Shown here one piece after another: positions 22,855-51,003 of a stretch of DNA of 64,000 bases. The stretch spans positions 5,714,001-5,778,000 of the forward strand of contig NC_084943.1 in NCBI RefSeq assembly GCF_958298935.1, read 5' to 3'. The stretch is from Phragmites australis (lineage: Eukaryota; Streptophyta; Magnoliopsida; Poales; Poaceae). The notes under the pieces were generated by a model. The model ran no database searches. It was given only the letters and a program-made list of their open reading frames with translations, and was not told the origin of the DNA. How positions within the stretch are numbered: position 1 is the first letter of the stretch; each line of letters opens with the position of its first letter. A program made the translations under genes and the position numbers.

Positions 22855-23991
22855 TTGCAGCTCGAAACACTTAATTTTGTTGGGTGCACTAATTTTTCTT
22901 GAGGTATGAAACCTTGAAAGGTGACTGGAGAAGATTGTAACAAATTCCTTTGATACTGAACACCATGAAAGCTTGGAGAAGAATGGCCATATGGTTGATA
23001 GTTGGCTGCAAGACCAGAAGTGTGGAAGTTCTAAAAATTAGGTGATGAGTATTGGGAGAAAGTTGTGCGGAATTGAGTAAGAGGAGAGCTTTGATTAACA
23101 TTCACACGGTGTTAGTTTGAGGAGCCTTGATTCGACTAGTAGTGTCTGATGAAATGTGAAGCTTCTATTTGATTTTAGGCATGTCTCTGTTTTGTTGGTA
23201 ACAGCTTGAGCACGATGATGCCAACGGCTAACTGACTTGAAATTCTTTATTCTTTGTAAATAGTAACATAACACAAATAACGTATTTTATTGTCCTACTG
23301 CGTGGCAGTTGATGAATGACCAAGTTTTAGTTGTGACCAGCTTCCATAATAGCTATTACCGGGTAGTGAGCCAGCATTTATTGTTTACTACCCGGTTTTT
23401 ATAGCACATTGTAGTTGCTCTGACAGTGAAGAAGTTATCGTTGCAGCCCCTTAGTGGTATGATTTGGAAAACTAATAGGACCATGAGACGACAATATGGA
23501 GCCATAGAAAGGAAGTTTTGACAGGGAAGAGAATGTAGTCGGGATAATAATAGAATTTCCTACAAGTTTAATTATTTATTGAGAAGGTTATATTTTTCCT
23601 GGTTCTTTGTTGGAATCTATATATAAAGATGTGATAGTGTAGGGGAAATGAATTGTAACAGCAGGTAGCTATAGGACGAGTGTCATACCAATAGAGAAAC
23701 CAGCTGTTGGCCGAGTCTTTCTGCTTTGACATAAATTTTTACTAAATATGCAACATGCATTATTGTGCTTACAACAAATTAATCATCATGTGGACCAACA
23801 TGTCTTGGGAAGTTCAGTCATATATTTACCGAAGTGCAGAACTTATATATGTTGCGGTTGCAAATTATTAATTGTGAAACCATTAATGTAAAGTTATGAA
23901 GACTTAATGAGAGCCATTAATACAGATAACTATGATACTAGCAATGGTTAATGGGTTGGGATTTCTCTAACCCATTAGTGTAAGCAAAATA

Positions 23992-24247
23992 CTCCCTTTG
24001 GTCATAAATACTAGAAGTTTTTTTTACCAAGATCTAGTCAAACTTTTAAAACTTTGATCATCCATAACTTTCAAAATATTAAATTTGAAAATATAAAAAT
24101 CATACGTGTAGATTTATATTAAAAATACTTTCATAATATAATATTTTATTATATATTATAACTATATTCTAATAGAAAACAATAATTAAAGTTGCATGTT
24201 GAAAACACTAAATAATAAAAATATTATGTATTTTTGACCGGATGGAG
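23992..24247. mobile_element. Stowaway-like MITE (copy B)
   Basis: This is the duplicate of the MITE at 17344-17599, with ends CTCCCTTTGGTCATAAATAC and ttgaccggatggag flanked by TA. Its terminal repeats are closer to the CTCCCTCCGTC consensus than those of copy A. Confidence 0.75.
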
Positions 24248-24965
24248 TAGTAAAAATGCTCCCAGCCAGCTCTAAAGAACAACTAAGCGGCAGGGAGGAA
24301 GAGAAAGATGTGAGAGCAGGGGCAGATCAGGGGAGCTAGGGGCTCCAGTCCCTTATTGCTTGGTCACCAATGGAAGTCCTTCTGAGCCCCTTAATAATTT
24401 TTTATCATGGATGAGGGAAAGGAAGAATAAGGAGAGGAGGAAGAGGAGACGGACAGAGATGAGTGTCCTACCTAATTCTCTACATTTGTTCCTGTGAGAG
24501 AGATAGTCCATTATGTAACTATAATTAACAGCTTAAGAGAAAGAATAACATTCTCATTATAAAGATGAATGCAAAATACCGCTTTCCTTAAATTCCTTTC
24601 ACATACTTATGTCGTACTATTGTGGAAAGGGCATTCCTTTCAATATTGATTCCTGGCACTACCCCACTTGAACTCTTGATCTCCTTCGTGAGTCACATGG
24701 GGATGAGAATGGTACAACGGCAACCTCCACTTGCGAGCACACATCCTGGAAGCTAGCAGATGGGACATCCCTATTGGAAGAAAATATTGATTCCTTGCTA
24801 TTGTGCTTTTGTGACTGAATTCTCTACTCAAATGAAACATACTGACGGGCTCCGTGAAAAACGTAGTAAAGGCTACAATCTCTTAGCACATATTTCTTTT
24901 CTTATTTCGTCAAAACTGTATCCATCTCTAGAATCGCAAATGTTTGGAACACAGGAATGACATCA

Positions 24966-27684
24966 TCAAACCGCAGCTTCCTTGGTCGTTGCCGGAGCAA
25001 CCTTATCATCCGCCATGGCCGCTTGCATTTTAGGGTCGTGCCTGTAAGTGTAACTCCACGCACAGAACAAGTAGAGAAAGAAAGAGACGAGCCCGAACAG
25101 CGCGAGGAGCCAGTAGAACAGATCGAGGCGGCTGGCGTTGAGGTTGGCGCCGTCGAGCCATCCGTGGCCCCCGCCGCGGGCTGCGGTAGCTCGGTTGACC
25201 ACCTGGATGAGGAAGCTCCCGAGCCACGACGCGACGCCGAGCATGCAGAAGAAGACAGCGCCGCCGATGGACTTCATGCCGGCGGAGGCCTCGTTGTAGA
25301 AGAACTCGAGCAGGCCGACGAAGGAGGTAACGTCCATGATGCCAAGCAGGAAGAACTGCGGCGTCAGCCAGAACAGCGACATCGGCGGCGCGCTGGTGGC
25401 CCTGCTCCTGCGACGGCCCTCCACCACGGCGGCTAAAGCGAGCGCCACGATGTTGGACGCGAACCCGACGCCGACGCGCTGCAGGTGCGTGATGCCGCCA
25501 GCGTAGCCCGTCGTGCGGCGCAGCCACGGCACGACGGCGCGGTCGTAGACGACCAGGATGAGCATCTGGAACACGATGGGGATGACGAAGAGGCTCGCCG
25601 GCGGGACGTTGGCAACACCGAGGCGGGTGTCCATGGTCCCGCCCTGCTGCACGGTGAAAGTGAGGAGCAGAGGGATCGGGAGATAGCCTAGAACGGAGCT
25701 GAGGAAGACGGGCAGCATGCGGAGGATGATCTTGGCCTCCTCCACCTGCGTCACCGTGCAAAGTGACCACCTCCGTGTGTCGCCGTCGTCCACGGCCGCC
25801 TTGTCAAGGAACCTTAGACACAGCACGCGAACGAAAAGTTAGTCAATCTGTGCACCAAACGGTCTGTGCACGGCGACCAAGGGATCCAACATGATAAATA
25901 ACAAAAGGAAAATAAATATCCAAAGGGTAAACCCGAAAACTCATTTTTGATTCTGCGTAAACATTTATAACGTATTCCAAGGATTTCAATTTTGTTTTAT
26001 AATTTTTTTCGTTCACCGATGAAAGCCATTTTTCGCAAAATTTCACCAAAATTTTGATCTTTTCCGTCTTCAACTCTATGGGCCTCACATGTCAGTAATG
26101 GAAAATTACGAAATTAAATATTTCGTTTCTCTCTTAAATTCGTGAGAACTACTTTTCTTCGCAGGTGGACTCGTTCCGGTAGAGACGGACAAGTGAACCC
26201 ACTTACTTGAAGCCTGAAGTTCTCTCCAGCACTTCGGTGCTGGTGCCTGTTCCTTCAGTGATCTCATGCAACGGCATTAAATTCTCAGGCAATGGAAGAT
26301 TCCTCTTCCTAAAAGCAGACACAAAAACCTGTAATTGACACAAAAAAATTGAATAATTGATCAATGAAATAGTACAACAACTTTCACATGATAATATTAC
26401 CAAGTTTGCTAACTCAGAACTGAGCTGACGTATGTACCTGAAAGATTCTTGTGAGGGGGCTCCCCCTGGGCACCTGGTGCCGGTAGAATGGCAGGCCGCC
26501 GATGACGACGACAGTACCGAGGAGCGCCACGAGCGCGGAGAGCGCGAAGCCAAGGTCCCAGCCCTCGTTGTTCTGCACCCACACCACGAAGACGAGCCCC
26601 ACGAACCCGCCCAGCGAGATGCAGAAGGCGAACCAGTTGAAGAAGCTGATCTTTCCGCGAAGCTCCTGTGGGTCGTCGTCGTCGAACTGGTCACCGCCCA
26701 GCGCCGCCGCGCACACCCGCACCGCGCCCTCGCCGATCGGGATCACGTACAGGCCCAGGGTGAGCAGGCTCAGGTTCCGGCCGCTCACCGGCGTGCAATC
26801 GTTGGGGTGCTTGATTATGTCGCATGGCGGCGGGTGCAGTGATGGAAAGTGTGCTTGGCATGCGAGGAGCATGTACCCCTGCGCAAGAAACAAATTGGCC
26901 GACCGGTTCATTCAAAATTTTACCATTTGCTATATATTTAAGCTAGGCATGACCAGTTCCACGTCTTGGGAATGTCGATCCGTTCCGGAAACGCGGCAAC
27001 AATCTGATCTCCACTTTATCAAAATCTTTTGCATATAGCGTACCGTGTTCCTCAATTCAGTCTCTCAACCCTATTGATCCGGAAATTATGTGATTATTCT
27101 TCAAGCAAACATACTCACCAAAATCTCGATGGGGGCGAAGACTAGAATGGTGTAGAAGCGTTTGATGTAGGAGTCGGAGATGAAGGCGCCAAGGAAGGTG
27201 AAGACGCAGATCGCGCCATAGAAGTTAGCGGCGGTGGTGGAAGCGTCGGCGATGCCCATATGCATCGTGCCATGCAAGTAACTCACTATGTTCAGTAGCA
27301 TCGGGATGTTTCCAATGTTTGTCATCACAACGAGGACTGCAAACACAGGGAAAAAACAATCAAGTTTTTATTTATTTATATGTGCCTTGCACTTGTTACA
27401 AATAGTAAAAAAAAAAAAACACGTTTGAGCAAGGAGCAGCTGTTTTTCAATTCGTTTCGAAAGGTCATTTAGTTTTCTTTTCAAAATTAAGGGACACGAT
27501 CTCGATCCTGATTCAAATTAAATCGATCCCACTTTCACCGCATACACCATCATCCCGTAACAACCAAAAGAAGGTGGATGCTATATTGTTACTTACAGTA
27601 GATGAACATGGTGGCTTTCACCCCACCATGCCTCTTCCGGCTAACTGGCTGTCCCTTCCAGGTTACAAGGCCTTGCGAAGCCAT
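24966..27684 (-). CDS. NPF: NRT1/PTR-family (NPF) transporter, intact five-exon gene
   Basis: This is a proton-coupled-type membrane transporter of the NPF (PTR2/POT, major facilitator) family, whose members move nitrate, peptides, hormones or glucosinolates. Exons on the minus strand are 27597-27684, 27119-27336, 26438-26878, 26207-26328 and 24966-25812. All introns are GT-AG and the total is 1716 nt, giving 571 residues, the normal family length. The start follows gcagcc; RHGGVKA is near residues 18-24. Visible motifs are GGDQF (163-167), SFFNWF (180-185), a central loop with RGSPLTRIFQ, LDKAA (292-296) and long hydrophobic helices in exon 5. The helix 1 ExxER motif is not conserved: FLVVMTNIGNIP has Thr and Gly in place of both Glu. 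QAHFPSLHP and FISDSYIKRF resemble NPF3-type proteins, so NPF3-like is my best guess. Substrate is unknown. Confidence 0.93.
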
Positions 27685-28953: not shown

Positions 28954-30841
28954 TGAGAAGCTTGGTTAAAATGTTCCATGGTTTATAAATGATGAGTAAT
29001 TGATATTGGTATTTATTTAGTTTGATGATCTTCAGTTTTGTATGAGCTTTGATATGCTAATTCTGGTCAACCCGAAACTTTCGGTCCAAACCTAGAACTT
29101 CCGGTCCAAATCCAGAACTTCCGGTTGACTATTCGGTGTTCAAAGTTTTTATCTTACCGAAGCCTCTGGCGTTCAGTTTTGGCAGCCAACCCAGAACTTC
29201 CGATCAAAAACCGAAACATCCGGTGTCATGGGAAAACTGAAACAAAGAGCACCAGTCCGGATTGAACCTGGTACTTCTGGGTACTGGAACTTCTGGTTTT
29301 GACCTAGAAGTTCCAAGCACCCAAGTTAAAGTTCAAATATCCGGTGTTCATGATTCTTTTTGGGATGTGATTTCAACTGGGAATTTTGATTTTGGACTAA
29401 CTAAAGATGGAGTTGGAGAAATGTGTTTGTTTGTCTCATGATGTGTAGGTAATGGGTGCAACTTGACGGTCAACGGTGGGATGATCGGGACTAAGTGGGA
29501 TACTTGGTTTCGGACGATAAGGAGGTCGGGCAGAGTCAAAGGTAATCCTAACTGTGCATATGGAGGTGAAACAAAGCATAAGAAGATGGATGAAGACGAT
29601 ATATTGACAAAGTCAAATGACGGGATGCTTATGCAAGTGACAAGGCGGCCCGAGGGATCAAGAGTGAAAGAGACTTACCAGCAGTTAAGATTGCAAGATA
29701 GAGTACACATGTCGACATCGGGATGTTTGCTTGAGGTGAAAGCAGGTGATAATGAGTCATACTTTGAGAAGCGTACGAGGTAGTTTCGTGGTTTGACCTC
29801 AAAACTGTAGAAGGATGAAGTGCACATGATATCATCGTGAATCTTGCGTCGAGGCAAAGCTAAGTCGTGAAGACACCACGATCGTCAAATAGATGAAGGA
29901 GAAAATGGAGCAAAATGTCCTTGGTGGTAGGTAAGCTCCTAAGATCTATAAATAGAGGGGTATATCTGTTGGGAGAGGGTGAGCTAGACACTTGAGTTTG
30001 TATGCTAGGATTTTAGAGGAGAGGAGAGAGGAGAAATTAGCCTTTGTAATAGATGAGGAATTTTTGTGAAAATAATCTTTGTAATCCGTCTAAAATAAGG
30101 CCAACCTCTACAAGCAATAGAATTCATGTTTCCTATTGTGATTGTGTTCACCTCCTTCTAGTTTCCTTCTCTTGCCTCCCTTGCTTTGTTGCAAGTTTTC
30201 GATGTTACGTTGCAATTTTTGTTTTTGGTTGAAAGCTTAAAATTTTCACCTTGTCAAGTCATTCTTCTTGTTTCTAGAGGCATAAAATTCACATACAAAT
30301 GTATACAAGTTGTTCTTGAATTCTCTTGCTTCTAGATCATCAACTTGTAGGATTTCTTCACCTAGTGTTCTTAATTCACTTTTGTGTTCTTTGCCAAATC
30401 TACAAAATCAAAGGGTGAATTCTTGATCTTCTTGAAAAGATCTTTTGGGTAAAGATTCACCATGGATGTGCTAAGCTATGGCTAAAATTTTGTTGGATTT
30501 CGACCATGTTTGATTGGACTTCGAGTTTGGATTTTCGATTCTCATGCTGAAGTTTTTCCTCTGGAACTGTTCAACCTGGAACTTCTTGATCCTTATCAGG
30601 ACTTTTAGATTATTTCAAATTTCCATCCTGAGGCTCTTCTTCCGGTCTCAATCCAAAACTTATGGATCCAACTCGGAATTTTCGGGTTCATTTTTTTCAC
30701 TGTGTTTTTGTGTTTTGTGTTGCGCTTTGTTGTGATCCATTTTTTAGGTGTGTTGGGTGACAAAATAGGAGAAGCCAATGTTTCAAAATAAATTGTTGAG
30801 GCACCTATTCACCCCCTCTAGTCATCATTTTTTGTCCTATA
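28954..30841 (+). repeat. 5' LTR of Copia element B (about 1.9 kb)
   Basis: It begins TGAGAAGCTTGG directly after caccg and ends gtcctata just before the primer-binding site. It carries a run of short (g)aacttccggt-type repeats at 29080-29340 and a TATA box at 29947-29955. It is clearly diverged from the 3' LTR, so the insertion is not recent. Confidence 0.85.
29947..29955 (+). promoter_or_regulatory. TATA box in the 5' LTR of Copia element B
   Basis: tataaatag lies in agatctataaatagagggg. It is conserved with the other LTRs of the family and marks the expected start of the genomic transcript about 30 bp downstream. Confidence 0.6.
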
Positions 30842-30843
30842 AT

Positions 30844-30855
30844 TGTTATCAAAGC
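30844..30855 (+). other. Primer-binding site of Copia element B (degenerate)
   Basis: The site reads tgttatcaaagc, differing at two positions from TGGTATCAGAGC in element A. It lies two bases after the LTR end. Confidence 0.65.
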
Positions 30856-30906
30856 CTGGTTTGATCATTTATTGATCTTGACCGGATTTGTGATCCATAG
30901 ACAATA

Positions 30907-32877
30907 ATGAAAAGACATGGGAAGATTCCACTCTTTGAAGGTCGTGACTTTTCTTATTAGAAGGTGCACATGGAGGCATATCTCCTAAGCCAAGGAAGTG
31001 CAATATGAGAGGTTATAGACTCCAACTATGATATACCTGCTGCTCATACATATCAAGTCCAAATTGAACAATATGAGGCCAACAACAAGATTAGAAATAT
31101 ATTATTCACTAGTCTTAGTCAAAATAAGTTTGATAGGATTCAGCACCTTCACACTACTCGAGAGATTTGGACCACTCTTAGTGTCTTTCATGAGGGCACT
31201 AACCAAATTAAGGTATGGCATCAGAGCACATATAATCAAGAATATTAGATGTTTGTGTAAGTACTCACTTTGGATTCTATGTTTTCTATATTTGATAGAA
31301 TTATTAGCAACCTTAGATACACTGGTGTTTTGCCCTACTCTGATCATGAGAGGGCAATCAAGCTTCTCTATACTCTTGATCGTAGTATATAGAAAGTGAA
31401 GATCTTGAGTATTGAAGGGTCATCAAGTTATGACATATTGACCTATTATGTACTCTTTAGCAAGCTCAAATCCACCGAGATAGCCAAGACGGCTAGAATA
31501 AGCCTAGGAAACCCATGTCTCAGAACATGGTATTGTTTGTAGGAACTAGCTGTGGTAGTTAGGATGGAGTTAGTTTTTCTTATGCTAACCCTTCACCTAG
31601 AGGATTTTCTTTGTCTTCTTTGATTTCTATCACAGAGGAGCAGATGAACGCATTAGATGACAAAGATTTGGCTTTGATAGTGAAGAAGTTCACCCGCTTC
31701 TATAACAACAGAAGAGACTGGAGGAGAGACAGTTCTCATGCCTGTTTTGAGTGTGGTGATACCACTCACTTCAAGATAGATTGTCAAGACTCAAGAAGAA
31801 GGAGGATTGCGGCCACGACCATGATAAGAACAAGAAGAACAAGAATCCCTTCTTCAAAAACTGCAACAAGATGGCCAAGAAGATAGCCAAGGTGGCATCT
31901 CAAGCTTTTGTGGTGGTGCTCAGTGATGTTGACACCTCCTCAAGCGAGGAGAAAAATTCATAGGAGGGGGAGCCGCCCATAAAGAATAAGAAGAAAAAGA
32001 AGGATTTCACCAGTCTTTGCTTCCTCGCAGACGATAATGACAGCAACCCCGAGCTCGATTCTTCCTAGGTATCACCTTCTATTCAGGTTGATACCTTGAA
32101 TGATGCTCTTGTTAATCATGATAGATTGCTTAAGAGAGTGGTTTGAGAAGTAAAGTAGCTCAAGTCTAGGCTAAAATGTCCTTCTTCTGAGCTCGAATTG
32201 CTTAGATCTAGGTGAAGGATGAGGAGTGTGAAAGTTTCCACGTGGTCATGAGTGAGCTTGCTGAGCTTCAAACTCTGCATGCTCAAGTCACCAGTCAGCT
32301 TGAGACTGCTAAAAATAAGCTCCTTGAGAATGAGTCTAGACCTACTATCTTAGACGCTTGCAAGAATTACCCTTTGTTCTCAAAAGATGTTGATGTGGAA
32401 GCTAATCCCATAAATGAGCTAAAGTCTAGATTGAAGAGTATTGAGTGTTCTAAGGATGTGCAGCCAAACTATTTTACTTGTATCGTCCTTAAAGACAAGC
32501 TCAGCTTAGTTAGAGGACAAGTTGAGAAGCTCATAACTAAGAATGAGTACATCCTTTCTCTTGTGGAGAAGTGCTCAAAAGGCAAGGGCAAAATGGATTT
32601 GATCTTGGAAGAAACTAACATGTGTGCAGACAAGGCGGGGTTAGCTTTGGGTTTGGGGTTCGAGAGAGTTGCTGACACTAGTCCTAGCAATATTGTTTTC
32701 ACCTCACCCACTACCCTAGAAGCCGAAAAGTCCAAAATCAATACCATATCACAACCCATCAAGACACCAACACCATAACCCAAGAGAGCTCTGCAACCTA
32801 AGATGAGAGCTCCTGTGAGTGAACCTAGAGTGACCGGTAGTCAAGTTCCCAAGACACATTACCACTGCGCATACTGC

Positions 32878-32935
<58 letters not shown>

Positions 32936-33328
32936 CCTTATTAGGTTTTGCTTTCCCCGTAGGAGGGATCGGCGGCATGAGTGGGAGTGGAGCACTTGGA
33001 ACATGTACTCCGTTCTTTTGGTGTACATGAGCCTTTTCCTTACTCTTTCTCACTAGTGCCTGATGCTCTTCAGTTCTCTTTTAGAGGCGTTGCCCAGCGT
33101 GGATTATACAATGATTCATATGGTTTTGGTCCACGTGGCCGAGGTTTTGAGTTGCAGCGCTTTGGCGGAAAATGTTTTTCTCTTCATGATGCTCGCCCCT
33201 AGCGTGCTAGACCTATTTTGCCTACACATATTTTCACCTTTTCATCTCGAGTGTCTTGATGCTGGATTTCCAAGAAGTTTCTTACTTACCCTAGCACTAA
33301 GTACTCGAGCTCTACTTACTTGATGTAG
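30907..33328 (+). pseudogene. Copia gag pseudogene of element B
   Basis: From the ATG at 30907 the frame reads MKRHGKIPLFEGRDF, the usual opening of Copia gag. It meets a TAG after about 17 codons where the family has Trp. A UBN2 domain follows (KFDRIQHLHTTREIWTTL, about 31120-31180). The zinc knuckle CFECGDTTHFKIDC (31742-31783) keeps a full CX2CX4HX4C. A helical region follows (32212-32778, 188 open codons rich in Leu, Lys and Glu). Then comes an (AG)n microsatellite within the frame, and a Gly/Phe/Arg-rich linker (32981-33202). Several stops and frameshifts break it. Confidence 0.8.
32880..32932. repeat. (AG)n microsatellite in gag
   Basis: About 26 uninterrupted AG dinucleotides encode an Arg-Glu run in the gag frame. 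The equivalent region of element A lacks it, so it expanded after the two elements diverged. Confidence 0.9.
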
Positions 33329-36074: not shown

Positions 36075-36869
36075 TTGATGATTGACGACCTTGTTGAGAG
36101 GGTCACAAGATCTAAATATGCTCAACATGCTCATTTAACAGATTCTATATTTGTTGCTTCTTTTGATCCCCATGATGTTGGACACACTCTTTCTGATTCA
36201 AATTGGGTCAATGCCATGCATGAAGAACTAGAAAACTTTAAGAGAAACCAAGTGTGGGTCCTTGTAGAGCCACCCCCTAACATTCATACTATAGGCATCA
36301 AATAGGTTTTCAAAAACAAATAGGGGGAGGATGGGTTTGTAGTGAGAAACAAGGCTAGACTTGTGGGTCAAGGTTTCACTCAAATAGAGAGGATAGACTT
36401 TGGAAAGACCTTTGCACCTGTAGCTACACTAGAAGCTGTTAGGATTCTTCTTGCATTTGTGTCATCTAAAGGTTTCAAGTTGTACCAAATGGATGTCAAG
36501 AGTGCTTTCCTAAATGGTTTCATAGATGAAGAGATCTTTTTCAAGCAACCCTATGGTTTTGAGCACCCTAAATACCCACATAGAGTGTACAAGCTTCAGA
36601 AAGCTTTGTATGGGCTTAAGCAGACACTTAGGGCTTGGTATGATATGCTTAAATCTTTCTTGCTAGAGCATTGGTTTGTGATAGGTTCAGTTGATAAAAC
36701 TTTGTTCACCCTTAGATATGACAATGATTTCCTACTTATTCATATATACGTGGATGCTATCATTTTTTTTGGCTCTTCTCATGCTCTTGTTGCCAAGTTT
36801 CCAGAAACTATGAGTAGGGAATTTGAGATGTCAATGATGGGCGATCTCAACTTTTTCATTGGACTTTAA
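36075..36869 (+). pseudogene. Copia reverse transcriptase, element B
   Basis: RVT_2-type reverse transcriptase. SNWVNAMHEELENF and NQVWVLVEPP lie in the first open frame, with a TAG at 36303-36305. The second frame (36342-36869) holds KARLVGQGFTQ, FAPVATLEAVRILLA, the first catalytic Asp in LYQMDVKSAFLNG, KALYGLKQ, and the active-site box as IYVDAIIF. The family has YVDD: the second Asp is Ala, so the enzyme would be inactive even if translated. Confidence 0.88.
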
Positions 36870-39213: not shown

Positions 39214-39218
39214 CTAGG

Positions 39219-39496
39219 TGAAGGGATCGGTAATGTCATAAGAGGGGGGGAGTGAATTAGGACACTTAGAATATATTCAGCTACAAAAACTACACGAGAT
39301 AAACCTGTATTAATTTCTATCTAAATATACTCTAGGTTTGTTTAGTGTGTCTACACTATCGACCAAAGCACTTACAACCTATCTAAGAAGGTAAATTACA
39401 AGAATGTAAATGCGAGAACGTAAACGAGGTAGAGAGAGCAAACTCGGCACAAGGTTTTTTTATTCTGTGTTATCGATGGCATGAATGCCACCCCCT
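39219..39496 (-). repeat. 3' LTR stub of element C
   Basis: About 275 bp of LTR end, matching 49326-49597 in the same orientation at roughly 84% identity by eye. It stops at ccacccc and is joined to LTR sequence of opposite orientation. The stub pairs with the right LTR and the ctagg duplications to prove a single original insertion. Confidence 0.8.
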
Positions 39497-40276
39497 AGTC
39501 ATTTGAAGGTGTGGAATGTTGCTGGAGTCTAGAGGAAGCTCATACACATTTGAGAAGACATACAAGCTACCAAAGTACTCAAAGTGATCATCCAAGGTGA
39601 TTAAGCACAAGATTAGTGAGTGATTAGTGCTTATAGGCCTAGAGAGAGTGTTGCTAGGTGATTGCTGTCTAGAGAGTGGATCAAGGAGTGATCCAACCTT
39701 GTACCAAATGGTATACCGGCACCTTGGAGTCTTGGTGACTCATCGGCAAGCTTGTTCACCCTCCGACTTGGTGTGGAGCGGAGGCAAAACATGTGTATAG
39801 GGACGTGGAGACCCTTGCCTTGGTGGTTCAAGCTTTGAAGTAATCAGGCGGTAAGAACAGGAAGAGGCTAGTGGTGAGACCTTGCCTTGGTGGCTTGGTA
39901 GCTCATTTGGGTGAAGGCCTTGTCTTTGTGACTTGGTGGCTCAAGAGCCATGACCAGGTGCCGATCGGGAGCATATCCTTTGTGGAGCTCCAACGTGGAT
40001 TAGGGGTGACATTCATGACATTGATACCATGAGATAAAAATCCTTTAAGCTGAGTTTGCTCTCTCTATCTCATTTACCTTTCCGTATTTACATTCTTGCA
40101 ATTTACCTTCTTATATAGGTTGCAAGTGCTTTGATTGGTAGAGTAGATACACTATACAAACCTAAAGCACATTTAGATAGAAATTGGTATAGGTTTATCT
40201 AATGTAGTTTTTGGAGACGAATAGATTCTAAGTGTCTTAATTCACCCCCCCCTAGGACATCACCGATCATTTCAAT

Positions 40277-40288
40277 TGGTATTAGAGC
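40277..40288 (+). other. Primer-binding site, left arm of element C
   Basis: TGGTATTAGAGC follows the LTR end (tttca at 40274) by two bases. The mirror copy is at 49312-49323 on the minus strand. Confidence 0.75.
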
Positions 40289-40432
40289 TAGGACTCACAT
40301 CTAGCTCTACAATTTGTGTTAGAGCTTCACACCTTTTATAAGGTTTCTTCAATTCAAGTGGCATTTGAGCCTTAGTCTCATTGTGATTGGTTAGGCTTCA
40401 CCGCCTAGTGAGTTGTGATGTTCGGGGTTAGG

Positions 40433-42392
40433 ATGAATTCCCATAGTGCTCCACTTTTCGATGGCACTAGTTTCCCCTGGTGTAAAATTCTAATGACTTG
40501 TTATTTGATCCCTATGGTTGGATGTTAGGAGAGTCACCGAGGAAGTGATGCAACCTTGCATCACCAACAAGGAGAGAAAAATTAGATGCATTGGTAAAGA
40601 GTATCCTTTTATCATCTATATGTGTTGATGCACTTAATCATGGTTATTCTCTTACCAATGCATATGATATTTGGACTAGTCTCATTGAAATACATGAAGG
40701 CACAAAGGATGTGCGCAATGAAAAATATTATGTGCTTGTTACTAAGCTCAATAGCATCAAACAATTACCCCATGAAAGTGCTAATGACATGTACTCACTT
40801 TTGAATATTCTTGTCAATTAGATCAATGTATTAGGTTTGGCGCCAATTGAAGATGATCAAGTGATGAGAAGAATACTTTAAGCTCTTCTTCCGAAGTACA
40901 AGTTGATAGTCTCCATTATTTAGGACAATATTGATATCAAGAAGATGACTCTAAGTCAAGTGCTCGGCAAGATCACTGCCTATGAGATGATAATAAATAT
41001 GGGGGTGGAAGTTTCTTCCTATCTGACACCAAGAATCTTGCTCTCACAAGCAAGCATGCTCAATATCAACACATGAAGGCAAAGATGAGAAAATAAGAGC
41101 AAGAGTCAAGCTCAAGTGAAGATGATGGAGATGAAGATGAAGAGAACTACGAAGAAGATGAGTAAAGCACCTCAAGTGATGAAGAGATGGATCCCGAAGT
41201 CACCAAGCTCATCTCACAAGTGGAGAAGAACATCAAGAAGACCAATGCCAAGATTGACCACCCAATCTCTACGAAGGACTTGGTCAAAATAATTGATCAC
41301 ATCAAGGAGAAGAAGACCAAGATCAAGAAGAGGGAGACAAAGGGAGAGCTAAGTCACTTGCTAGCATAGGAAGATGGGTAAGTGATGATGAAGATTCAAG
41401 CTCAAGTGACGATAGCATCACCATCCATTCCTCCAAGAGAAGCTCTTCCTCAAGGTCATCATCACACAAGTTGTCATCAGGTAAGTCATCTCACAAGTGC
41501 CTTATGGCCAAAGGTATGGATAGCGATATAAGTGATGATGAATCTGATGATGATTCTTCTTCCAATGATAAACTCTTTCATTTGGTCAATGAGCAACAAG
41601 GGGCCCTTAAGAAACAATCTAAAGAGCTTAAGAAATTTAATGCACTTAATCACATTCATACTACCTTTGTTTCTAATTATAAATAGTTATTATGCAAATT
41701 CGATTTGCTAAATAAGGAGCATGAAGAGCTTAAAGCTAAATTTGAGTGCATTGAATCTCAAACGAAGGTCCCTTTGAAGCAACCTACCTCTCTATTTAAT
41801 TTTAAGCCTGAGGCAAATGCTTCTACTTCTTGCAATGATTTAATTGATATATCATGCTCACCTTTTTGCAATGAGATTTGTGTTGAGAATGTTGTTGTAG
41901 AATCATTTAACAACCTTATTGTACAAGAGAATGATGAGCTTAAGCCAGAAGGACTTGGCGAGTTTAAAGGGTAAAGGACATGTCCAACCTCCTCAAGATA
42001 ACCGTGCTTTCACGATGAATAAGCTTGCGAAGGGATCCACCGTGACATGCTTCAAATGCCGTCAAGAAGGCCACAAGTGCTTCCAATGTAAACAAGTGAA
42101 GAAGGAGACCAAAGAGAAGAAGATGGCGAACCTCTCCAATAAGACCTTCAACCTCTACACTAAGACCATCTACAAGATCAAGACTAAGAGCAACCACTAC
42201 AAGCTCAAGAAGAAGGACAATGGCAAGATGGTTACACACATAGTTAGGAGAAAGGATTGGAGGTGGAACCAACCCATTTGGATGCCCAAGGAAGTCATCA
42301 GCAATATGAAGGGCCCCAATCAATTTGGGTTTCAAAGAAGACTTGAAGGCCGAAGCGGCTATGGGGATTTGGAGATTTGGCTCACAAGATGA
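40433..42392 (+). pseudogene. Gag pseudogene, left arm of element C
   Basis: Opens MNSHSAPLFDGTSFPW, then a UBN2-type domain (40591-40821: YDIWTSLIEIHEGTKDV and KLNSIKQLPHESANDMYSLL). Acidic Ser/Asp-rich and Lys-rich regions follow. A CCHC knuckle, CFKCRQEGHKCFQC, lies near 42050-42091, followed by a basic tail to 42392. A TAG after SLLNILVN (40819-40821) and several later stops and shifts break the frame. The same breaks occur in the right-arm copy. Gag-only coding is typical of non-autonomous LTR elements that borrow enzymes from relatives. Confidence 0.85.
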
Positions 42393-43010
42393 AGTGAAGG
42401 TTCAAGCAAAGAAGTCAAGTATACAAGTTTAGGCGCTTTGATGAAAATCATGATCATCGTATATCCAATCCTCATCCAAAGTTAAAAAAGGTAAATGGTA
42501 GCTAGACTTATGTTAATGCATTTTGTTTTTTTCTTCTAGCTTATTTGCCTCGTCTAGGATTGCATATGCATATTTCAATTTATTGCAATGCCTAGTGTAG
42601 TTTTCATATGGTACGTTGCTTGTGTTTATCTCTAACCTATGAGCAACCTACATGCTTTATTAGTTGTAGGTTCTTTATATGGCACTATTTTTACAATTTT
42701 GTATTATTTATGTGCCATGATCCATTCTATAGGATATATCCCTATTGTTATCAATAACAAGTGCATATATATCTCACAAGTATTCAACACTTGTATGCAC
42801 ATATTTAGGGGAGTATATCCTATAGGTTATGATTTTGAGACTAACATGTGTTTCTAGTGACATCTTTTGTAGTCTCATGAAGGAATTAATATGTCCCTGG
42901 AAGTATGCAATGCTTAAATACTTCAACTGGTATCATTGTAAAATATTTTATTTATTTAAGTTGTATACATGCATAATATAGCTTAAATTTCCTATCTTGA
43001 CATATTGTCT
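42393..43010 (+). other. 3' non-coding region of element C, left arm
   Basis: Non-coding AT-rich sequence after gag. A 72-codon open frame at 42639-42857 exists identically in the right arm (46743-46961). Because it is duplicated by the inverted repeat this is not evidence of coding. Confidence 0.5.
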
Positions 43011-43149
43011 AGTTGTGCATAATATTGCCAAGCAATCCGCCTTCCCATGGTTCTAGGCAGTCCAACCGAGGAGTGTTCCTGCCTCAGCTTGGTCCCAAAG
43101 TATCCCCTTGGACAACACCTGGGATACCCTGAGAGAGCCAACATCTTCC

Positions 43150-43510
43150 GCGACCCCCTCGGCCCTTAGACTTTGCCTGGCTCCAGAGTTACTCTGTCTG
43201 GAACCTGGCGACGGCATGTCGAAGGTGAGGCCGAGGGCTAGGCGGGAGAGGTGGTTCGCGACTCCCTCGGCCCTTAGCCGCTGCCCAACTTTAGAGGTAC
43301 TCCATCCAGAGCCTGGCGACGACGTGTCGAAGGTGAGGCTGAGGGCTAGGCGAGTGAGGTGGTCCACGACCCCCTCGTCCCTTAGCTGCTGCCTGGCTCC
43401 AGAGGTACTCTATCCAGAGCTTGGCAACAGCATGTCGGAGGCAAGGCTGAGGGCTAGGCAGGAGAGGTGGTCCGCAACCCCCTCGGCCCTTAGCTACTGC
43501 AATGAATTTG
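43150..43510. repeat. Tandem ~110 bp repeat, spacer array 1
   Basis: Three to four copies of a GC-rich unit starting near 43157, 43260, 43372 and 43485. Each carries cctcggcccttag, ggctccagaggtactc, gagcctggcgacg and gagggctaggcgggagaggt. Two further copies lie at 45670-45880, so the array is split by about 2.1 kb of other sequence. Confidence 0.85.
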
Positions 43511-43704
43511 CGGCCTCTGCAATGGATAGTCGAGGGTTCCACTATGTTTCTCGTGCCACGTAGCGTGGGATTTTATTTAATGTCAGTATAATTTTCACAA
43601 AATGACATATGAAATGTGTCTTTAAAGGATATGGTAGGGTAATGATTTTACCTTTTACCATACGTGTTTGAGTCACGTGGGTCATACCTTTCCCTATAGG
43701 GAGG

Positions 43705-43720
43705 GGGATTTATATACCCC
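43705..43720. promoter_or_regulatory. TATA-like promoter motif in the Gypsy block
   Basis: ggggatttatatacccc reads TATATAAAT on the minus strand and ttatata on the plus strand. It is a candidate LTR promoter at the heart of the inverted repeat. Confidence 0.4.
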
Positions 43721-43849
43721 TTTGATCTGTTTGCTGTGCCCTTTGGAGGCCAGCGGGTTTCGTACCCCTTCAGCACGGAGTTATTTGCCTTCAAGATGCC
43801 GAGGTACTCATCCCGTCATGTCCTTTCAGAACTTGGAGTTTTCGGAAAA

Positions 43850-44330
43850 CATCCCCATTCGCGGGGGTTTTTGGAAGTCTCTCCGTTTTAGCGGAGGTTT
43901 GGTAAACTCTTCGTGGCGCGGAGGTTTGGTAAAGCTCTCCGTTTTTGTCGGAGGTTTTGTAAAACTCTCTGTTGTGTTGAGGTTTTTGGAAGTCTCTCTG
44001 TTTTGGCAGAGGTTTGGTAAACTCTCCGTTGTGCGAAGGTTTTTAGAAGTCTCTCCGTTTTGGCGGAGGTTTGGTAAACTCTCCATTGTACGGAGGTTTT
44101 TCGAAGTCTCTCCATTTTGGCGGAGGTTTGGTAAAATCTCCGTTGTGCAGAGGTTTTTCGAAGTCTCTCTGTTTTTGTTAGAGGTTTTGTAAGGTTCTCC
44201 ATTTATGTCAGAGGTTTTGTAAGACTCTCCGTTTTTGCCGAAGGTTTTGTAAGACTCTCCATTTTTATCAGAGGTTTTGTAAGACTCTCCATTTTTGTCA
44301 GAGATTTTGTAAGACTCCTTAGCATGTACT
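43850..44330. repeat. Short tandem repeat, spacer array 2 (about 30 bp unit)
   Basis: At least fifteen copies of a unit with cggaggtttggtaaactctc or its variants gaggttttgtaagactctcc and gaggtttttggaagtctctc. In the first part two variants alternate as a ~60 bp higher-order unit; in the last part a single variant is repeated. The continuous open frames on both strands here (43668-44192 and 43888-44202) come from the repeat period being a multiple of three. Confidence 0.9.
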
Positions 44331-44339
44331 AATGCCGAA

Positions 44340-45450
44340 GGCCCTACACACTATGGGAGCTACACAATACTTTCCAGGAAACCTATGTAGTCTTGCCTCC
44401 AGGAGACCTAGGCATGCTACGCCCGCGGTGTGTAGGCTTATCGTGCTCCTGAGGAAACGCCCGGGGTGCACCACAATACTATTCACCAAGGATGTGCCCT
44501 AGTGTGTGGCATTTATACGACCGAAGCTATGCAATACCTTCCAGGAAACCTAGGCTTGATGCCTTAGCGGTGACCTAGGCATGCTGCACCTGTGGTATAT
44601 AAGCATGTCTTGCAATGAGGATATCTTGCGACAGCATTCCTCAGAGCACCGCATCCTCACATCAGAGCCATACCCTGACATGCGGCGTCCACACACTATC
44701 GAGGCTACACAATACCTTCCAGGAAACCTAGGCAGTCTTGCCTTCCAGGTGACCTAGGCATGCTACGCCCGCGGTGTGTGGGCTCCACTGCCTATTAGGA
44801 CAAAGCCTACCCTCCGGGGAACCTTTTCAGGTGACCTTGGGTTGAGGCAAGTAATGCTTACTGGTGCGTGGCCCTATCACGCCTCCGAAGAAATCCCTCG
44901 GGGGCGCCACAACTACATTACCAAGGAAGTCCCTTGATGGCCAGCATCTACACACTATCGAGGCTACACAATACCTTGCAGCAAACCTAGGCAGTCTTGC
45001 CTTCCAGGTGACCTAGACATACTACGCCCGTGGTGTGTAGGCATGTCATGCAACGAGGATTCCTTGCGACAGTATTCCTCAGAGCACCGCATCTCCACCA
45101 TTGAGGACATCCCCCAGGGCGTGGCTTCGACATCCGAGGCTATGCAAATGCCTTCCAGGGCACCCTGGGCGTAATCTGCCTTCTAGGTGACCTAGGCATA
45201 AGCGGCGCCCACGGTGTGTGGGCCTCACTGTCTACCGAGATTACGCAATGCCTTCCAGGTGACCTAAGCATGCTACGTCCGCGGTACGTGGGCTTGTCAC
45301 GCCACCCGAAGATGTTGCATAGGTGGCGTTGCAACACGGTCTATCAAGGAAATCCCTTGATACGTGGCAACTACAATTCTGAGGTCGCACAATGCCTTCC
45401 AGGAAACCTGGGCAGACCCGCCCCCTAGGCGACCTAGGCACGATACGTCT
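44340..45450. repeat. Diverged tandem repeat, spacer array 3 (seven units)
   Basis: A core with gaggctacacaataccttcc, aggaaacctaggcag, aggtgacctaggcatgctac and cccgcggtgtgtgggc recurs at about 44345, 44520, 44695, 44955, 45125, 45233 and 45380. Spacing is irregular (110-260 bp). It covers the symmetry axis of the palindrome at 44800. Confidence 0.85.
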
Positions 45451-46070
45451 GTGAGAGTGTAGGGATTTTGTAAATGAGGATGTAACTTAAGTTCTACTGC
45501 TTCTACCTAGTGGCTATCTATCACAAAAGACTTCTAGCAGTAAGGTTGGAGGCCTCCAACATACTCTAACCTTGCTGTATGAAACATAGATCACTAGGTA
45601 AACTACTGATAGTTTACAGTGGACGTACCTTTGTAGAAATAAGGCCTCTATCGTAAGGCTTGGAGGCCTCGAAGCCTGTGGCTAGGCCGGGAGAGGTGGT
45701 TCTTGACCCCCTTAGCCCTTAACTGCTGCCCGGCTCCAGAGGTAATCCGTCCGAAGCCTGGCGACAGCATGTTGGAGGCATAGTTGAAGGCTAGTCGGGA
45801 GAGGCGGTCCTCAATTGCCTCTGTCCTTAGCCGTTGCTTGGCTCCGGAGGTAATCCGTCCGGAGCCTGGCGACGGCATGTCCCTGACTCAGTTCTCGTTG
45901 TTGGATATAGTACCATTGGTAGTAGGGTTGGTAGTGATGGTGCAGGGTTGAGGGGCCGGGGATTTGCCCAAGAGTTTGCCCCAGGCCTCCGAACCCTGCA
46001 TTATCCTTTGCTGGCTCCTTCTGCGGCCACGTATCCTGCTTGCCTTCCGAGATATTCCTCCCAGAAGGTC
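45451..46070. other. Gypsy block, non-coding part with two array 1 units
   Basis: Two copies of the array 1 unit at about 45670-45880, otherwise no recognisable coding sequence. Confidence 0.5.
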
Positions 46071-46079
46071 ATGAGGGTG

Positions 46080-46455
46080 TGGCAGTCAGTGGTGTTGTGG
46101 CCGCGCCCTAGTCCGTGCAGGATGCACCCGTGTGCCTTCGGGGGCACTGGAGCTTGGAGTCATTGGGGTCGCTGTAGAAGGCGGTGTGTCCCAGAGCCTG
46201 TGGTTTCCCCAGGGTCTCCTTCCCCTTTGGGAGACCGTCGAGGCTACCCGGTGAACCAACGTTTAGAGACGAAGTGGTTCTGACTATGCCTCCCCAGATG
46301 AGGTGGGCTTGGGGTTCCCTATGCACAGTTGGCGTTGTGAGGGCCTCGTTGGAGGCGCTGATGGGGTCTGCACACCCCGGAGCCCTACATCTCCTTGGAA
46401 CGCTCTTTCGCCTGAGGGGCTCAAGGAGGACACTGGGTGGACAGACTTTCTGAAG
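46080..46455 (-). pseudogene. Gypsy gag zinc-knuckle fragment
   Basis: Minus-strand reading gives AHGCILHGLGRGHNTTDC followed by HTLMTFWEEYLG. This fits the C...H...C zinc-knuckle pattern seen after the capsid region of many plant Gypsy gag proteins (CxxHxxxGHxTxxC). Downstream protease and RT are missing. Confidence 0.5.
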
Positions 46456-49400
46456 ATGTTGGCTCTCTCGGGGTATCCCAGGTGTTGTCCAAGGGGATAC
46501 TTTGGGACCAAGCTGAGGCAGGAACACTCCTCGGTTGGACTGCCTAGAACCATGGGAAGGCGGATTGCTTGGCAATATTATGCACAACTAGACAATATGT
46601 CAAGATAGGAAATTTAAGCTATATTATGCATGGATACAACTTAAATAAATAAAAGATTTTACAATGATACCAGTTGAAGCATTTAAGCATTGCATACTTC
46701 CAGGGACATATTGATTCCTTCATGAGACTACAAAAGATGTCACTAGAAACACATGTTAGTCTCAAAATCATAACCTATAGGATATACTCCCCTAAATATG
46801 TGCATACAAGTGTTGAATACTTGTGAGATATATATGCACTTGTTATTGATAACAATAGGGATATATCCTATAGAATGGATCATGGCACATAAATAATACA
46901 AAATTGTAAAAATAGTGCCATATAAAGAACCTACAACTAATAAAGCATGTAGGTTGCTCATAGGTTAGAGATAAACACAAGCAACGTACCATATGAAAAC
47001 TACACTAGGCATTGCAATAAATTGAAATATGCATATGCAATCCTAGACGAGGCAAATAAGCTAGAAGAAAAAAACAAAATGCATTAACATAAGTCTAGCT
47101 ACCATTTACCTTTTTTAACTTTGGATGAGGATTGGATATACGATGATCATGATTTTCATCAAAGCGCCTAAACTTGTATACTTGACTTCTTTGCTTGAAC
47201 CTTCACTTCATCTTGTGAGCCAAATCTCCAAATTCCCATAGCCGCTTCGGCCTTCAAGTCTTCTTTGAAACCCAAATTGATTGGGGCCCTTCATATTGCT
47301 GATGACTTCCTTGGGCATCCAAATGGGTTGGTTCCACCTCCAATCCTTTCTCCTAACTATGTGTGTAACCATCTTGCCATTGTCCTTCTTCTTGAGCTTG
47401 TAGTGGTTGCTCTTAGTCTTGATCTTGTAGATGGTCTTAGTGTAGAGGTTGAAGGTCTTATTGGAGAGGTTCGCCATCTTCTTCTCTTTGGTCTCCTTCT
47501 TCACTTGTTTACATTGGAAGCACTTGTGGTCTTCTTGACGGCATTTGAAGCATGTCACGGTGGATCCCTTCGCAAGCTTATTCATCGTGAAAGCACGGTT
47601 ATCTTGAGGAGGTTGGACATGTCCTTTACCCTTTAAACTCGCCAAGTCCTTCTGGCTTAAGCTCATCATTCTCTTGTACAATAAGGTTGTTAAATGATTC
47701 TACAACAACATTCTCAACACAAATCTCATTGCAAAAAGGTGAGCATGATATATCAATTAAATCATTGCAAGAAGTAGAAGCATTTGCCTCAGGCTTAAAA
47801 TTAAATAGAGAGGTAGGTTGCTTCAAAGGGACCTTAGTTTAAGATTCAATGCACTCAAATTTAGCTTTAAGCTCTTCATGCTCCTTATTTAGCAAATTAA
47901 ATTTGCATAATAACTATTTATAATTAGAAACAAAGGTAGCATGAATGTGATTAAGTGCATTAAATTTCTTAAGCTCTTTAGATTGTTTCTTAAGGGCCCC
48001 TTGTTGCTCATTGACCAAATGAAGGAGTTTATCATTGGAAGAAAAATCATCATCAGATTCATCATCACTTATATCGCTATCCATACCTTTGGCCATAAGG
48101 CACTTGTGAGATGACTTGCGTGATGACAACTTGTGTGATGATGACCTTGAGGAAGAGCTTCTCTTGAAGGAATGGACGGTGATGCTATCGTCACTTGAGC
48201 TTGAATCTTCATCATCACTTACCCATCTTCCTATGCTAGCAAGTGACTTAGCTCTCCCTTTGTCTCCCTCTTCTTGATCTTGGTCTTCTTCTCCTTGATG
48301 TGATCAATTATTTTGACCAAGTCCTTCGTAGAGATTGGGTGGTCAATCTTGGCATTGGTCTTCTTGATGTTCTTCTCCACTTGTGAGATGAGCTTGGTGA
48401 CTTTGGGATCCATCTCTTCATCACTTGAGGTGCTTTACTCATCTTCTTCGTAGTTCTCTTCATCTTCATCTCCATCATCTTCACTTGAGCTTGACTCTTG
48501 CTCTTGTTTTCTCATCTTTGCCTTCATGTGTTGATATTTAGCATGCTTGCTTGTGAGAGCAAGATTCTTGGTGTCAGATAGGAAGAAACTCCCACCCCCA
48601 TATTCACTATCATCTCATAGGCAGTGATCTTGCCGAGCACTTGACTTAGAGTCATCTTCTTGATATCAATATTGTCCTAAATAATGGAGACTATCAACTT
48701 GTACTTCGGAAGAAGAGCTTAAAGTATTCTTCTCATCACTTGATCATCTTCAATTGGCGCCAAACCTAATACATTGATCTAATTGACAAGAATATTCAAA
48801 AGTGAGTACATGTCATTAGCACTTTCATGGGGTAATTGTTTGATGCTATTGAGCTTAGTAACAAGCACATGATATTTTTCATTGCGCACATCCTTTGTGC
48901 CTTCATGTATTTCAATGAGACTAGTCCAAATATCATATGCATTGGTAAGAGAATAACCATGATTAAGTGCATCAACACATACAGATGATAAAAGGATACT
49001 CTTTACCAATGCATCTAATTTTTCTCTCCTTGTTGGTGATGCAAGGTTGCATCACTTCCTCGGTGACTCTCCTAACATCCAACCATAGGGATCAAATAAC
49101 AAGTCATTAGAATTTTACACCAGGGGAAACTAGTGCCATCGAAAAGTGGAGCACTATGGGAATTCATCCTAACCCCGAACATCACAACTCACTAGGCGGT
49201 GAAGCCTAACCAATCACAATGAGACTAAGGCTCAAATGCCACTTGAATTGAAGAAACCTTATAAAAGGTGTGAAGCTCTAACACAAATTGTAGAGCTAGA
49301 TGTGAGTCCTAGCTCTAATACCAATTGAAATGATCGGTGATGTCCTAGGGGGGGTGAATTAAGACACTTAGAATCTATTCGGCTCCAAAAACTACATTAG

Positions 49401-50102
49401 ATAAACCTATACCAATTTATATCTAAATGTGCTTTAGGTTTGTCTAGTGTATCTACTCTACTAATCAAAGCACTTGCAACCTATATAAGAAGGTAAATTG
49501 CAAGAATGTAAATACGGAAAGGTAAATGAGATAGAGAGAGCAAACTCAGCTTAAGGGATTTTTATCTCATGGTATCAATGTCATGAATGTCACCCTTAAT
49601 CCACATTGGAGCTCCACAAAGGATATGCTCCCAATCGGCACCTGGTCATGGCTCTTGAGCCACCAAGTCACAAAGACAAGGCATTCACCCGAATGAGCTA
49701 CCAAGCCACCAAGGCAAGGTCTCACCACTAGCCTCTTCCTGTTCTTACTGCCTGATTACTTCAAAGCTTGAGCCACCAAGGCAAGGGTCTCCACGTCCCT
49801 ATACACATGTTTTGCCTCCGCTCCACACCAAGTCGGAGGGTGAACAAGCTTGCCGATGAGTCACCAAGACTCCAAGGTGCCGGTGTACCATTTGGTACAA
49901 GGTTGGATCACTCCTTGATCCACTCTCTAGACAGCAATCACCTAGCAACACTCTCTCTAGGCCTATAAGCACTAATCACTCACTAATCTTTTGCTTAATC
50001 ACCTTGGATGATCACTTTGAGTACTTTGTTAGCTTGCATGTCTTCTCAAATGTGTATGAGCTTCCTCTAGACTCCAGCAACATGCCACACCTTCAAATGA
50101 CT
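46452..50102 (-). repeat. Right arm of the giant inverted repeat
   Basis: Mirror image of 39497-43148. Over about 270 bp compared directly (40000-40274 with its partner) there are six substitutions and one length change in a C run, about 97% identity. The right arm is continuous with the full 5' LTR of element C, so it is the original; the left arm is the derived copy (inference). Confidence 0.95.
47208..49167 (-). pseudogene. Gag pseudogene, right arm of element C
   Basis: Mirror copy of the left-arm gag, with the same UBN2 segment (48779-49009), the same stop after SLLNILVN and the same CCHC region. Here the knuckle reads CFKCRQEDHKCFQC (Gly to Asp). One short frame has lost its ATG relative to the left arm (47626-47826 against 41705-41974). 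Few other differences are seen. Confidence 0.85.
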
Positions 50103-50998
50103 AAGTGGAGGGGTATTTATAACCTCACACCCACACACTAGCAGTTAACCTAACGTCTCAGAAAAGTTGTTAACATCGGATGGTACGATGATAATAATAG
50201 TACTAACATCGGATCATCCGGTAAGTACACTCTCACAAACTAGTTATTGGAACCCCACTCAAGCCTCTGTGAGCACTAGACACTCTGGTGTATACTTCAT
50301 CTCCATCACAGGACTACCCAGTGAGTTGTCTTGAGCCATTCGAACCTTTCCTTCTTCTATGTGTAAATTGCTCTGGTGAAAGCATCCGGTGCACATCACT
50401 TTATCACCGGACTATCCAATGAGTTGACTTCAGCCAACCGAGCCAATGCAACTCTCTCTAGAAATAATACTCTGGTGTACACAACATCCATCACCGGACC
50501 ATCCAGTGCCTTGAACTTCTTTCTTCAACGCTTGGGCACCCTATGTAAATTAGTCTGGTGTTAAGCCTCTGGTGTGTACAACACATACACCAGACCTTCC
50601 AGTGTGTTGAATTTCTTCTATCTATTTGCACTGTTTGTTGTCCGATGTGTGCAACACATTGATCACCGGACCATCTGTTACTTTGATCTTTAACTTCAAA
50701 GGCTGCAATCTTCTCTAGATCACCGGACCTTTCGGTGAGGTCTTCAGGCCTCTCTCCCCTTTGTCAAATATGCTCCGGTGAGTTTAACACACAGAGCACC
50801 ATACCATCCGGTGAGATAAATCTTCCTAGGACTTCTCCAATTCAATCTAACTTTGTCCCGGCTGCGGTGGCTTATTCATGTATTGTATCTATGAGATCTA
50901 CTTACATATATTTTTGATAGACATATTAGTCTCATTAACTATGTTATTATTAATCATCAAAATCATAATTATAGTCTACTATGACCATTTTAGCTACA
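49326..50998 (-). repeat. 5' LTR of element C (about 1.67 kb)
   Basis: On the minus strand it begins TGTAGCTAAAATGG beside the ctagg duplication and ends gatcatttca two bases before the primer-binding site. Its U3 half (50160-50860) carries repeated caccggaccatccggtg-like motifs. A tataaataccc TATA-like motif lies near 50116-50122 on the minus strand. Confidence 0.85.
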
Positions 50999-51003
50999 CT
51001 AGG

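What the first reader, a model, noticed from the sequence alone, without database searches (positions are those of the whole stretch)
39497..50102. 3.65 kb near-perfect inverted repeat inside one LTR-element insertion
Arms 39497-43148 and 46452-50102 are reverse complements, with paired coordinates summing to about 89600 from end to end. The whole lies inside a single insertion flanked by ctagg duplications (39214-39218, 50999-51003). A transcript through it would fold into a hairpin with an arm of more than 3.6 kb. Such loci (Mu killer in maize is the known example) can feed Dicer and silence a transposon family in trans. That function is inference; the palindrome itself is directly visible.
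Basis: partly seen in the sequence, partly recalled or inferred. Interest (0 to 1): 0.88.

Follow-up and report, generated by a model that had tools for sequence, protein, structure and literature searches.

The report
Late palindrome inside a fossil retrotransposon
A long-dead retrotransposon fairly recently gained a mirror-image copy of part of itself, giving a 3.65 kb palindrome that could in principle make hairpin RNA but shows no sign of having evolved as a transposon killer.

Summary
The palindrome is real: arms 39496-43148 and 46452-50103 are 98.8% identical, inside one LTR insertion flanked by CTAGG. The element ("D", minus strand) has a complete 1,673-bp LTR, a primer-binding site and decayed gag. 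The 3.3 kb spacer is part of a second LTR-type element ("X"). In the own genome, no other D match over 1 kb exceeds about 86% (36 scored of 11,141 candidates). On a tree with eight D copies the arms share a stem of 0.073 and have tips of 0.006, so the palindrome arose in about the last 8% of this lineage's life. The outer LTR ends differ by 17-18%. The joints carry an inferred 4-5 bp and 2 bp of microhomology. Best reading: an old insertion in which template switching during repair or replication later copied the 5' part backwards. A TATA box faces inward, so hairpin RNA is possible. A Mu killer-like role is not supported: no young D copy turned up, and hairpin 21-mers match family copies no better than an ordinary copy's do. 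No RNA data were available.

The parts
39214..39218 (.). target-site duplication CTAGG, left copy
39219..39494 (-). last ~276 bp of an LTR in the original orientation, taken as the remnant of D's 3' LTR; ends ...GATCCCTTCA
   Evidence: 81-82% to the arms' LTR end; same terminus in 2 of 3 other D elements looked at (C5, C2)
39495..39500 (.). outer joint: antisense arm end joined to the 3' LTR remnant; inferred 4-5 bp microhomology (G)ACTA
39496..43148 (+). left arm, inferred to be the inverted copy: promoter-less LTR part (39496-40274), PBS, decayed gag, D end (~43026), 122 bp of X
40277..40288 (+). primer-binding-site-like TGGTATTAGAGC behind the LTR end in the left arm (the same motif stands in the right arm)
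   Evidence: sequence; identification as an initiator-Met tRNA site is recalled
43147..43149 (.). inner joint: arm end joined to the 108-bp tandem array of X; 2 bp shared (TC)
43149..46451 (+). spacer: truncated internal part of LTR-type element X (108-bp and ~57-bp tandem arrays), antisense to the original D element
46452..46573 (+). end of the X fragment, inside the right arm; joint X|D at 46573/46574, seen only in the two arms among scored candidates
46452..50103 (-). right arm, inferred to be the template: R-U5, PBS, decayed gag, D end, 122 bp of X
49326..50998 (-). complete 1,673-bp LTR of D (TG...CA)
50114..50121 (-). TATA box TATAAATA reading into the palindrome; the same motif in 7 of 10 distinct D LTRs seen
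50999..51003 (.). target-site duplication CTAGG, right copy

Best explanation
A gag-only LTR retrotransposon (D, minus strand) inserted long ago at CTAGG and decayed in place. A second LTR-type element (X) came to lie inside it in antisense and lost its ends. Much later, DNA repair or replication switched template within X's 108-bp array, copied the 5' part of the element backwards (122 bp of X, gag, PBS, U5, R), and switched back by 4-5 bp of microhomology into the far end of the old 3' LTR. It replaced what lay between. Shown: the anatomy, the relative ages, no second copy among the scored candidates, the joint sequences. Inferred: template switching as the process, the right arm as template, the order X first and palindrome second (X's joint lies in both arms). 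Function: most likely none selected for. RNA from the one remaining full LTR would be a hairpin and could feed Dicer-like enzymes, acting mainly on its own locus (inference; I give about 0.2-0.25 to any detectable siRNA output).
For: Arms 98.8% identical; no other match over 1 kb above about 86%. Tree with the 8 D loci that cut out (L018-L025): arms' shared stem 0.0735 (support 100), tips 0.0058 and 0.0061; other copies' tips 0.070-0.092; polarised differences 20 left, 21 right, 1 unclear. So most decay predates the copying, and both arms share gag stops and frame breaks (read by eye). Outer LTR pair K = 0.203 over 270 sites against 0.145 and 0.126 for two other elements' LTR pairs. The outer end matches the terminus of 2 of 3 other elements and the 5-bp duplication is intact. 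Short microhomology at both palindrome joints. Arm differences are enriched for CpG transitions (9 of 31 transitions against 84 of 1,452 cytosines in CpG, p = 4.5e-5), as expected for methylated DNA evolving in place.
Against: The outer remnant is not closer to the arms (18%) than to other copies (15-21%), so its being this element's own 3' LTR rests on position, terminus and duplication; by distance, three control LTR pairs also fail to stand out. Difference density falls from 2.2% (R-U5) to 0.5% (inner part) although other copies vary evenly, which one duplication does not predict. The outer joint lies within a few bases of a deletion joint in another copy's 3' LTR, unexplained. 2 bp of microhomology is weak evidence, and the 4-5 bp rest on relatives' LTRs, not on the lost sequence. 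The D|X joint shows no clear microhomology. No empty or homologous site was found for the right flank; the left flank was not searched.
Confidence: 0.75

Rival explanations
1. Natural hairpin-RNA silencer (Mu killer-like): the right LTR promoter transcribes the palindrome, the RNA folds, Dicer-like enzymes cut it and the siRNAs silence the D family in trans.
For: Geometry: near-perfect stem, one full LTR with TATA facing inward, left arm without the promoter part. Grasses have such loci: Muk (PMC2563033, PMC3440606, passages) and 28 hairpin siRNA loci in maize pollen, one precursor of 4,480 bp (PMC11390486, passages).
Against: It postdates the family's burst roughly tenfold; no young D copy among the 36 scored candidates; exact 21-mer matches to the family no better than for ordinary copies. 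No RNA data.
Confidence: 0.15
2. The palindrome is older than 1.2% divergence suggests and its arms have been kept alike by gene conversion.
For: Differences are rarer towards the loop (mean position p = 0.0145, longest gap p = 0.052) while other copies vary evenly over the same segments.
Against: Equal numbers of derived changes in both arms; one recent event explains the average equally well. Tract edges were not tested for.
Confidence: 0.15
3. Reverse transcription with template switching made a palindromic cDNA that was then inserted once.
For: Target-site duplication and LTR termini at both outer ends; template-switched complex LTR insertions exist in grasses (PMC1950507, first of two parts of the text read). 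The arm end lies near the expected transcription start.
Against: Outer LTR ends differ by 17-18%, whereas one cycle of reverse transcription should make them alike; no donor copy near 98% among scored candidates; the arms carry ~0.073 of shared decay; the arm end has a microhomology explanation and lies 18 bases from the first base of the TATA box, short for a start site (recalled rule).
Confidence: 0.05
4. Assembly artefact: an inverted read chimera or two loci falsely joined.
For: Reads cannot be inspected; scaffold lengths such as 35,120,000 and 23,450,000 hint at scaffolding.
Against: No N in the window; a 3.3 kb spacer between the arms; 43 substitutions with CpG bias; one duplication outside both ends.
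Confidence: 0.05

Closest known systems
Mu killer (Muk), maize
   Same: Partly duplicated and inverted transposon derivative; a transcript through it can fold into a long hairpin (PMC2563033: a perfect 2.4 kb hairpin; PMC3440606: ~4 kb proposed, ~1,300 bp of mudrA inverted; passages seen).
   Different: Muk derives from a DNA transposon and silences active MuDR elements. Here the element is an LTR fossil, its relatives over 1 kb are at most about 86% identical among those scored, and no activity is shown. PMC3440606 also disputes the read-through hairpin model for Muk itself.
Endogenous hairpin siRNA loci in maize pollen (28 loci; Tpd1)
   Same: Hairpin loci in a grass genome, one precursor of 4,480 bp (PMC11390486, passages).
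   Different: Those are defined by 22-nt strand-biased small RNAs, which cannot be tested here.
Template-switched complex LTR retrotransposons (Sabot and Schulman 2007, PMC1950507, part 1 of 2 read)
   Same: Composite LTR insertion with one flanking 5-bp duplication.
   Different: Those have highly similar outer LTRs and three LTRs shared by two core sequences; here the outer LTR ends differ by 17-18% and the repeated unit is inverted.
Microhomology-mediated foldback and inverted templated insertions at DNA breaks (yeast, PMC11724301, abstract and outline seen)
   Same: Inverted copy of nearby sequence with short microhomology at the joints.
   Different: Local yeast foldbacks are mostly ~5-34 bp; here 3.65 kb with a 3.3 kb loop.

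Membership tests
LTR retrotransposon insertion (element D) | TG...CA ends with 5-bp target-site duplication | tested here: met
   CTAGG
LTR retrotransposon insertion (element D) | LTRs at both ends around PBS and gag | tested here: met
   right LTR complete, left LTR only its last ~276 bp; L020/L028 and L023/L030 show both LTRs, ~580 bp from D end to 3' LTR
Mu killer-type hairpin silencer | inverted duplication of a transposon | tested here: met
Mu killer-type hairpin silencer | promoter transcribing through both arms | tested here: inconclusive
   TATA at 50121-50114, same motif in 7 of 10 distinct D LTRs seen; no transcript data
Mu killer-type hairpin silencer | long hairpin RNA cut into small RNAs | not testable with these tools
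   no RNA libraries
Mu killer-type hairpin silencer | an active, closely matching target family | tested here: not met
   no match over 1 kb above about 86%, old star-like family; only 36 of 11,141 candidates were scored
Template-switched complex LTR element | highly similar outermost LTRs with flanking duplication | tested here: not met
   duplication present, but outer LTR ends differ by 17-18%
DNA transposon with long terminal inverted repeats / foldback element | arms form the mobile ends and the unit recurs in the genome | tested here: not met
   arms start inside the LTR, duplication lies at LTR ends; no second copy among scored candidates

The most novel reading that the evidence does not exclude
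A fossil LTR element gained, by a late inverted duplication under its own surviving LTR promoter, a long hairpin RNA locus whose siRNAs maintain silencing of old D copies in trans: a retrotransposon counterpart of Mu killer that can be dated on a tree.
Probability: 0.12. Interest if true: 0.7.

Novelty: new member of a known kind. Interest (0 to 1): 0.35.

Why it matters
It is a datable example of how long inverted repeats, the raw material of hairpin RNA loci, arise inside old retrotransposons. Because the arms, the likely template and relatives of the family are all readable, the order of events can be argued from sequence. If it makes siRNAs, it would show that even dead elements can become silencing sources; if not, it warns against reading every transposon palindrome as a killer locus.

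Tried and rejected
RNA-end origin of the arm: the outer arm end lies near the expected start of transcription, so I considered a cDNA. Set aside because a 4-5 bp microhomology can explain the end, the arm reaches to within 18 bases of the first base of the TATA box, and no donor copy was found among scored candidates.

CpG contrast: the outer LTR piece holds 8 CpG against 3 in the arms, which first suggested a different age; the other D copies span 4-8, so I dropped it.

LTR dating of the C2 copy: its short 3' LTR misaligned across the deletion (K 0.314) and was left out of the ages; its U5 alone differs by 12%. L019 and L027 hold the same C2 LTR and are counted once here, though tabled both.

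Protein searches: Pfam found nothing in 7 frames of the palindrome and spacer; the spacer frame had no homolog; the gag frame had 4 short unnamed hits. Rfam: nothing at gathering score in the window. Empty site: among 40 scored of 892 candidates, only the own locus matches the first ~1,530 bases of the right flank; the left flank was not searched. Organism not named by any tool; broomcorn millet was a guess from genome size and is unproven.

Full report
OBSERVATION. Self-BLAST confirms the inverted repeat: 39488-43148 against 46452-50111, 98.7% over 3,661 columns with 46 mismatches and 1 gap. The first 8 columns are not convincing homology, so I take 39496-43148 and 46452-50103: 3,609 of 3,653 columns identical, longest perfect run 520, and 3,486 bases in perfect runs of 21 or more. 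CTAGG flanks both ends directly outside TG...CA termini.

ANATOMY. Read on the minus strand, the element (here D) has a complete LTR of 1,673 bp (50998 to 49326), a primer-binding-site-like TGGTATTAGAGC and a gag region with a zinc-knuckle-like motif (by eye), broken by stops and frame shifts that both arms share. No pol was seen (one search covers 7 frames only), and in two relatives with both LTRs the distance from the D end to the 3' LTR is only ~580 bp (L028, L030), so the family looks gag-only and non-autonomous (inference). The outer left piece, 39494 to 39219, is the last ~276 bp of an LTR in the original orientation, ending GATCCCTTCA like two of the three other elements looked at. The left arm holds the LTR without its promoter part. 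The spacer 43149-46451, plus 122 bp of each arm, is the inside of another LTR-type element (X) with 108-bp and ~57-bp tandem arrays. Of six 10-kb X loci compared, five (L009, L010, L011, L013, L014) show direct repeats of ~0.75-1.0 kb around the X core; L012 shows none on the stretch held. X gave 164 matches from 36 scored of 1,893 candidates. It lacks both ends here, and the D|X joint at 46573/46574 was crossed by no match other than the two arms among the 36 scored of 11,141 candidates.

AGE AND ORIGIN. Apart from the arms, no D match over 1 kb exceeds about 86% (pieces of 693 and 260 bp reach 87-90%). I aligned both arms with the eight D loci that the search had cut out (L018-L025). The tree is star-like: copies' tips 0.070-0.092, arms' shared stem 0.0735 (support 100), arms' tips 0.0058 and 0.0061, with 20 changes derived on the left, 21 on the right and 1 unclear. 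The palindrome is therefore about 0.006/0.08, or 8%, as old as the lineage. With a recalled rate of 1.3e-8 per site per year this is about 0.5 against 6 million years. LTR pairs agree: K 0.145 (1,695 sites) and 0.126 (1,455 sites) in two other elements, and 0.203 in the window over only 270 sites. In U5 alone, three other pairs differ by 12, 17 and 13%, the window pair by 18%; pairs of one element are not reliably each other's nearest by U5, so this is consistent but not proof.

JOINTS. At the outer joint the antisense arm ends ...AAATGACTA and continues GGGGGTGGCATTC. At that LTR position L020 and L025 have GACTAGGGG, L024 CACTAGGGG and L018 GATTAGGGG, which implies 4-5 bp of microhomology. 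The inner joint shares TC with the X array; the D|X joint shows no clear microhomology. The left arm is bounded by joints on both sides, while the right arm runs on into a full LTR and into X, so I take the right arm as template and the left as copy. Microhomology and inverted copying fit foldback or template switching at a break (yeast precedent PMC11724301, abstract and outline seen).

AGAINST MY READING. Arm differences thin out towards the loop: 2.2% in R-U5, 1.2% in PBS and early gag, 0.5% from later gag to the D end, with 1 difference in the 122 bp of X, while other copies vary evenly at 15, 13 and 14% over the first three segments. Later gene conversion near the loop could explain this. 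The outer joint lies at almost the same LTR position as a deletion joint in the C2 copy's 3' LTR. A small hairpin-like TGGCATTCATGCCA stands there in some copies; whether it marks a weak spot is speculation.

ARTEFACT? The window has no N. Transitions between the arms fall in CpG in 9 of 31 cases against 84 of 1,452 cytosines (p = 4.5e-5), the mark expected of methylated DNA rather than of read error. The right flank's first ~1,530 bases match only this place among 40 scored of 892 candidates, so no second site could be compared; the left flank was not searched. Two paralogous loci falsely joined would show similar differences, so reads remain the real test.

FUNCTION. A TATA box (50121-50114), present in 7 of 10 distinct D LTRs seen, faces the palindrome; RNA started there and read through to 39496 would fold on itself. 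That such RNA exists is not shown. For a trans role the targets are poor: each of 8 copies shares 3.9-6.7% of hairpin 21-mers exactly, together 21.9%, and ordinary copies score 16.6-22.2% against the other seven (the hairpin was compared with eight and has two arms, which favours it slightly). Old, star-like copies and no close long match among those scored suggest that the family was quiet long before the palindrome formed. Muk, by contrast, acted on active MuDR (PMC2563033 and PMC3440606, passages), and its own read-through model is disputed in PMC3440606. Maize pollen has 28 hairpin siRNA loci (PMC11390486, passages), so a hairpin locus as such would not be new.

LITERATURE. Searches listed no paper whose title or visible start of abstract describes an LTR-retrotransposon palindrome acting as a Mu killer-like locus. 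This covers only the held open library, the terms used and the rows listed (25 of 32, 20 of 31 and 15 of 28).

VERDICT. A confirmed, unusual but explicable structure: a fossil LTR element with a late in-place inverted duplication. The silencer role is possible and untested, and the available evidence leans against it.

Noticed in passing
L019 161-903 and window 39494: The 3' LTR of the D copy at C2:19.1 Mb has an internal deletion whose right joint lies at LTR position ~1404, almost the same as the palindrome's outer joint; a possible recurrent breakpoint.
   Followed up: partly
G000 C18:22621184-22624636: D matches on opposite strands next to each other (69%, 78% and 83%); possibly another, older inverted arrangement.
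   Followed up: no
L015 1-9666: Another D copy (C12) is interrupted by an X-like element at about 603-8713 with ~885-bp direct repeats at its ends; X matches lie antisense to D.
   Followed up: partly
window 24966-26911: Two minus-strand frames with PTR2 (POT family) matches; 10-403 is 82% like 26420-26815, so a second copy or fragment lies at the window's left edge.
   Followed up: no
window 15354-18229 and 20772-24871: Direct repeats of 1.0 kb (90%) and 1.9 kb (95%), possibly LTRs or a recent duplication.
   Followed up: no
window 5588-9431 and 29336-33178: A second, much more diverged inverted pair (72.6%); an RVT_2 frame lies at 36324-36866.
   Followed up: no
window 45470/45471: X relatives such as L009 carry ~94 bp here that the window's X lacks.
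   Followed up: no
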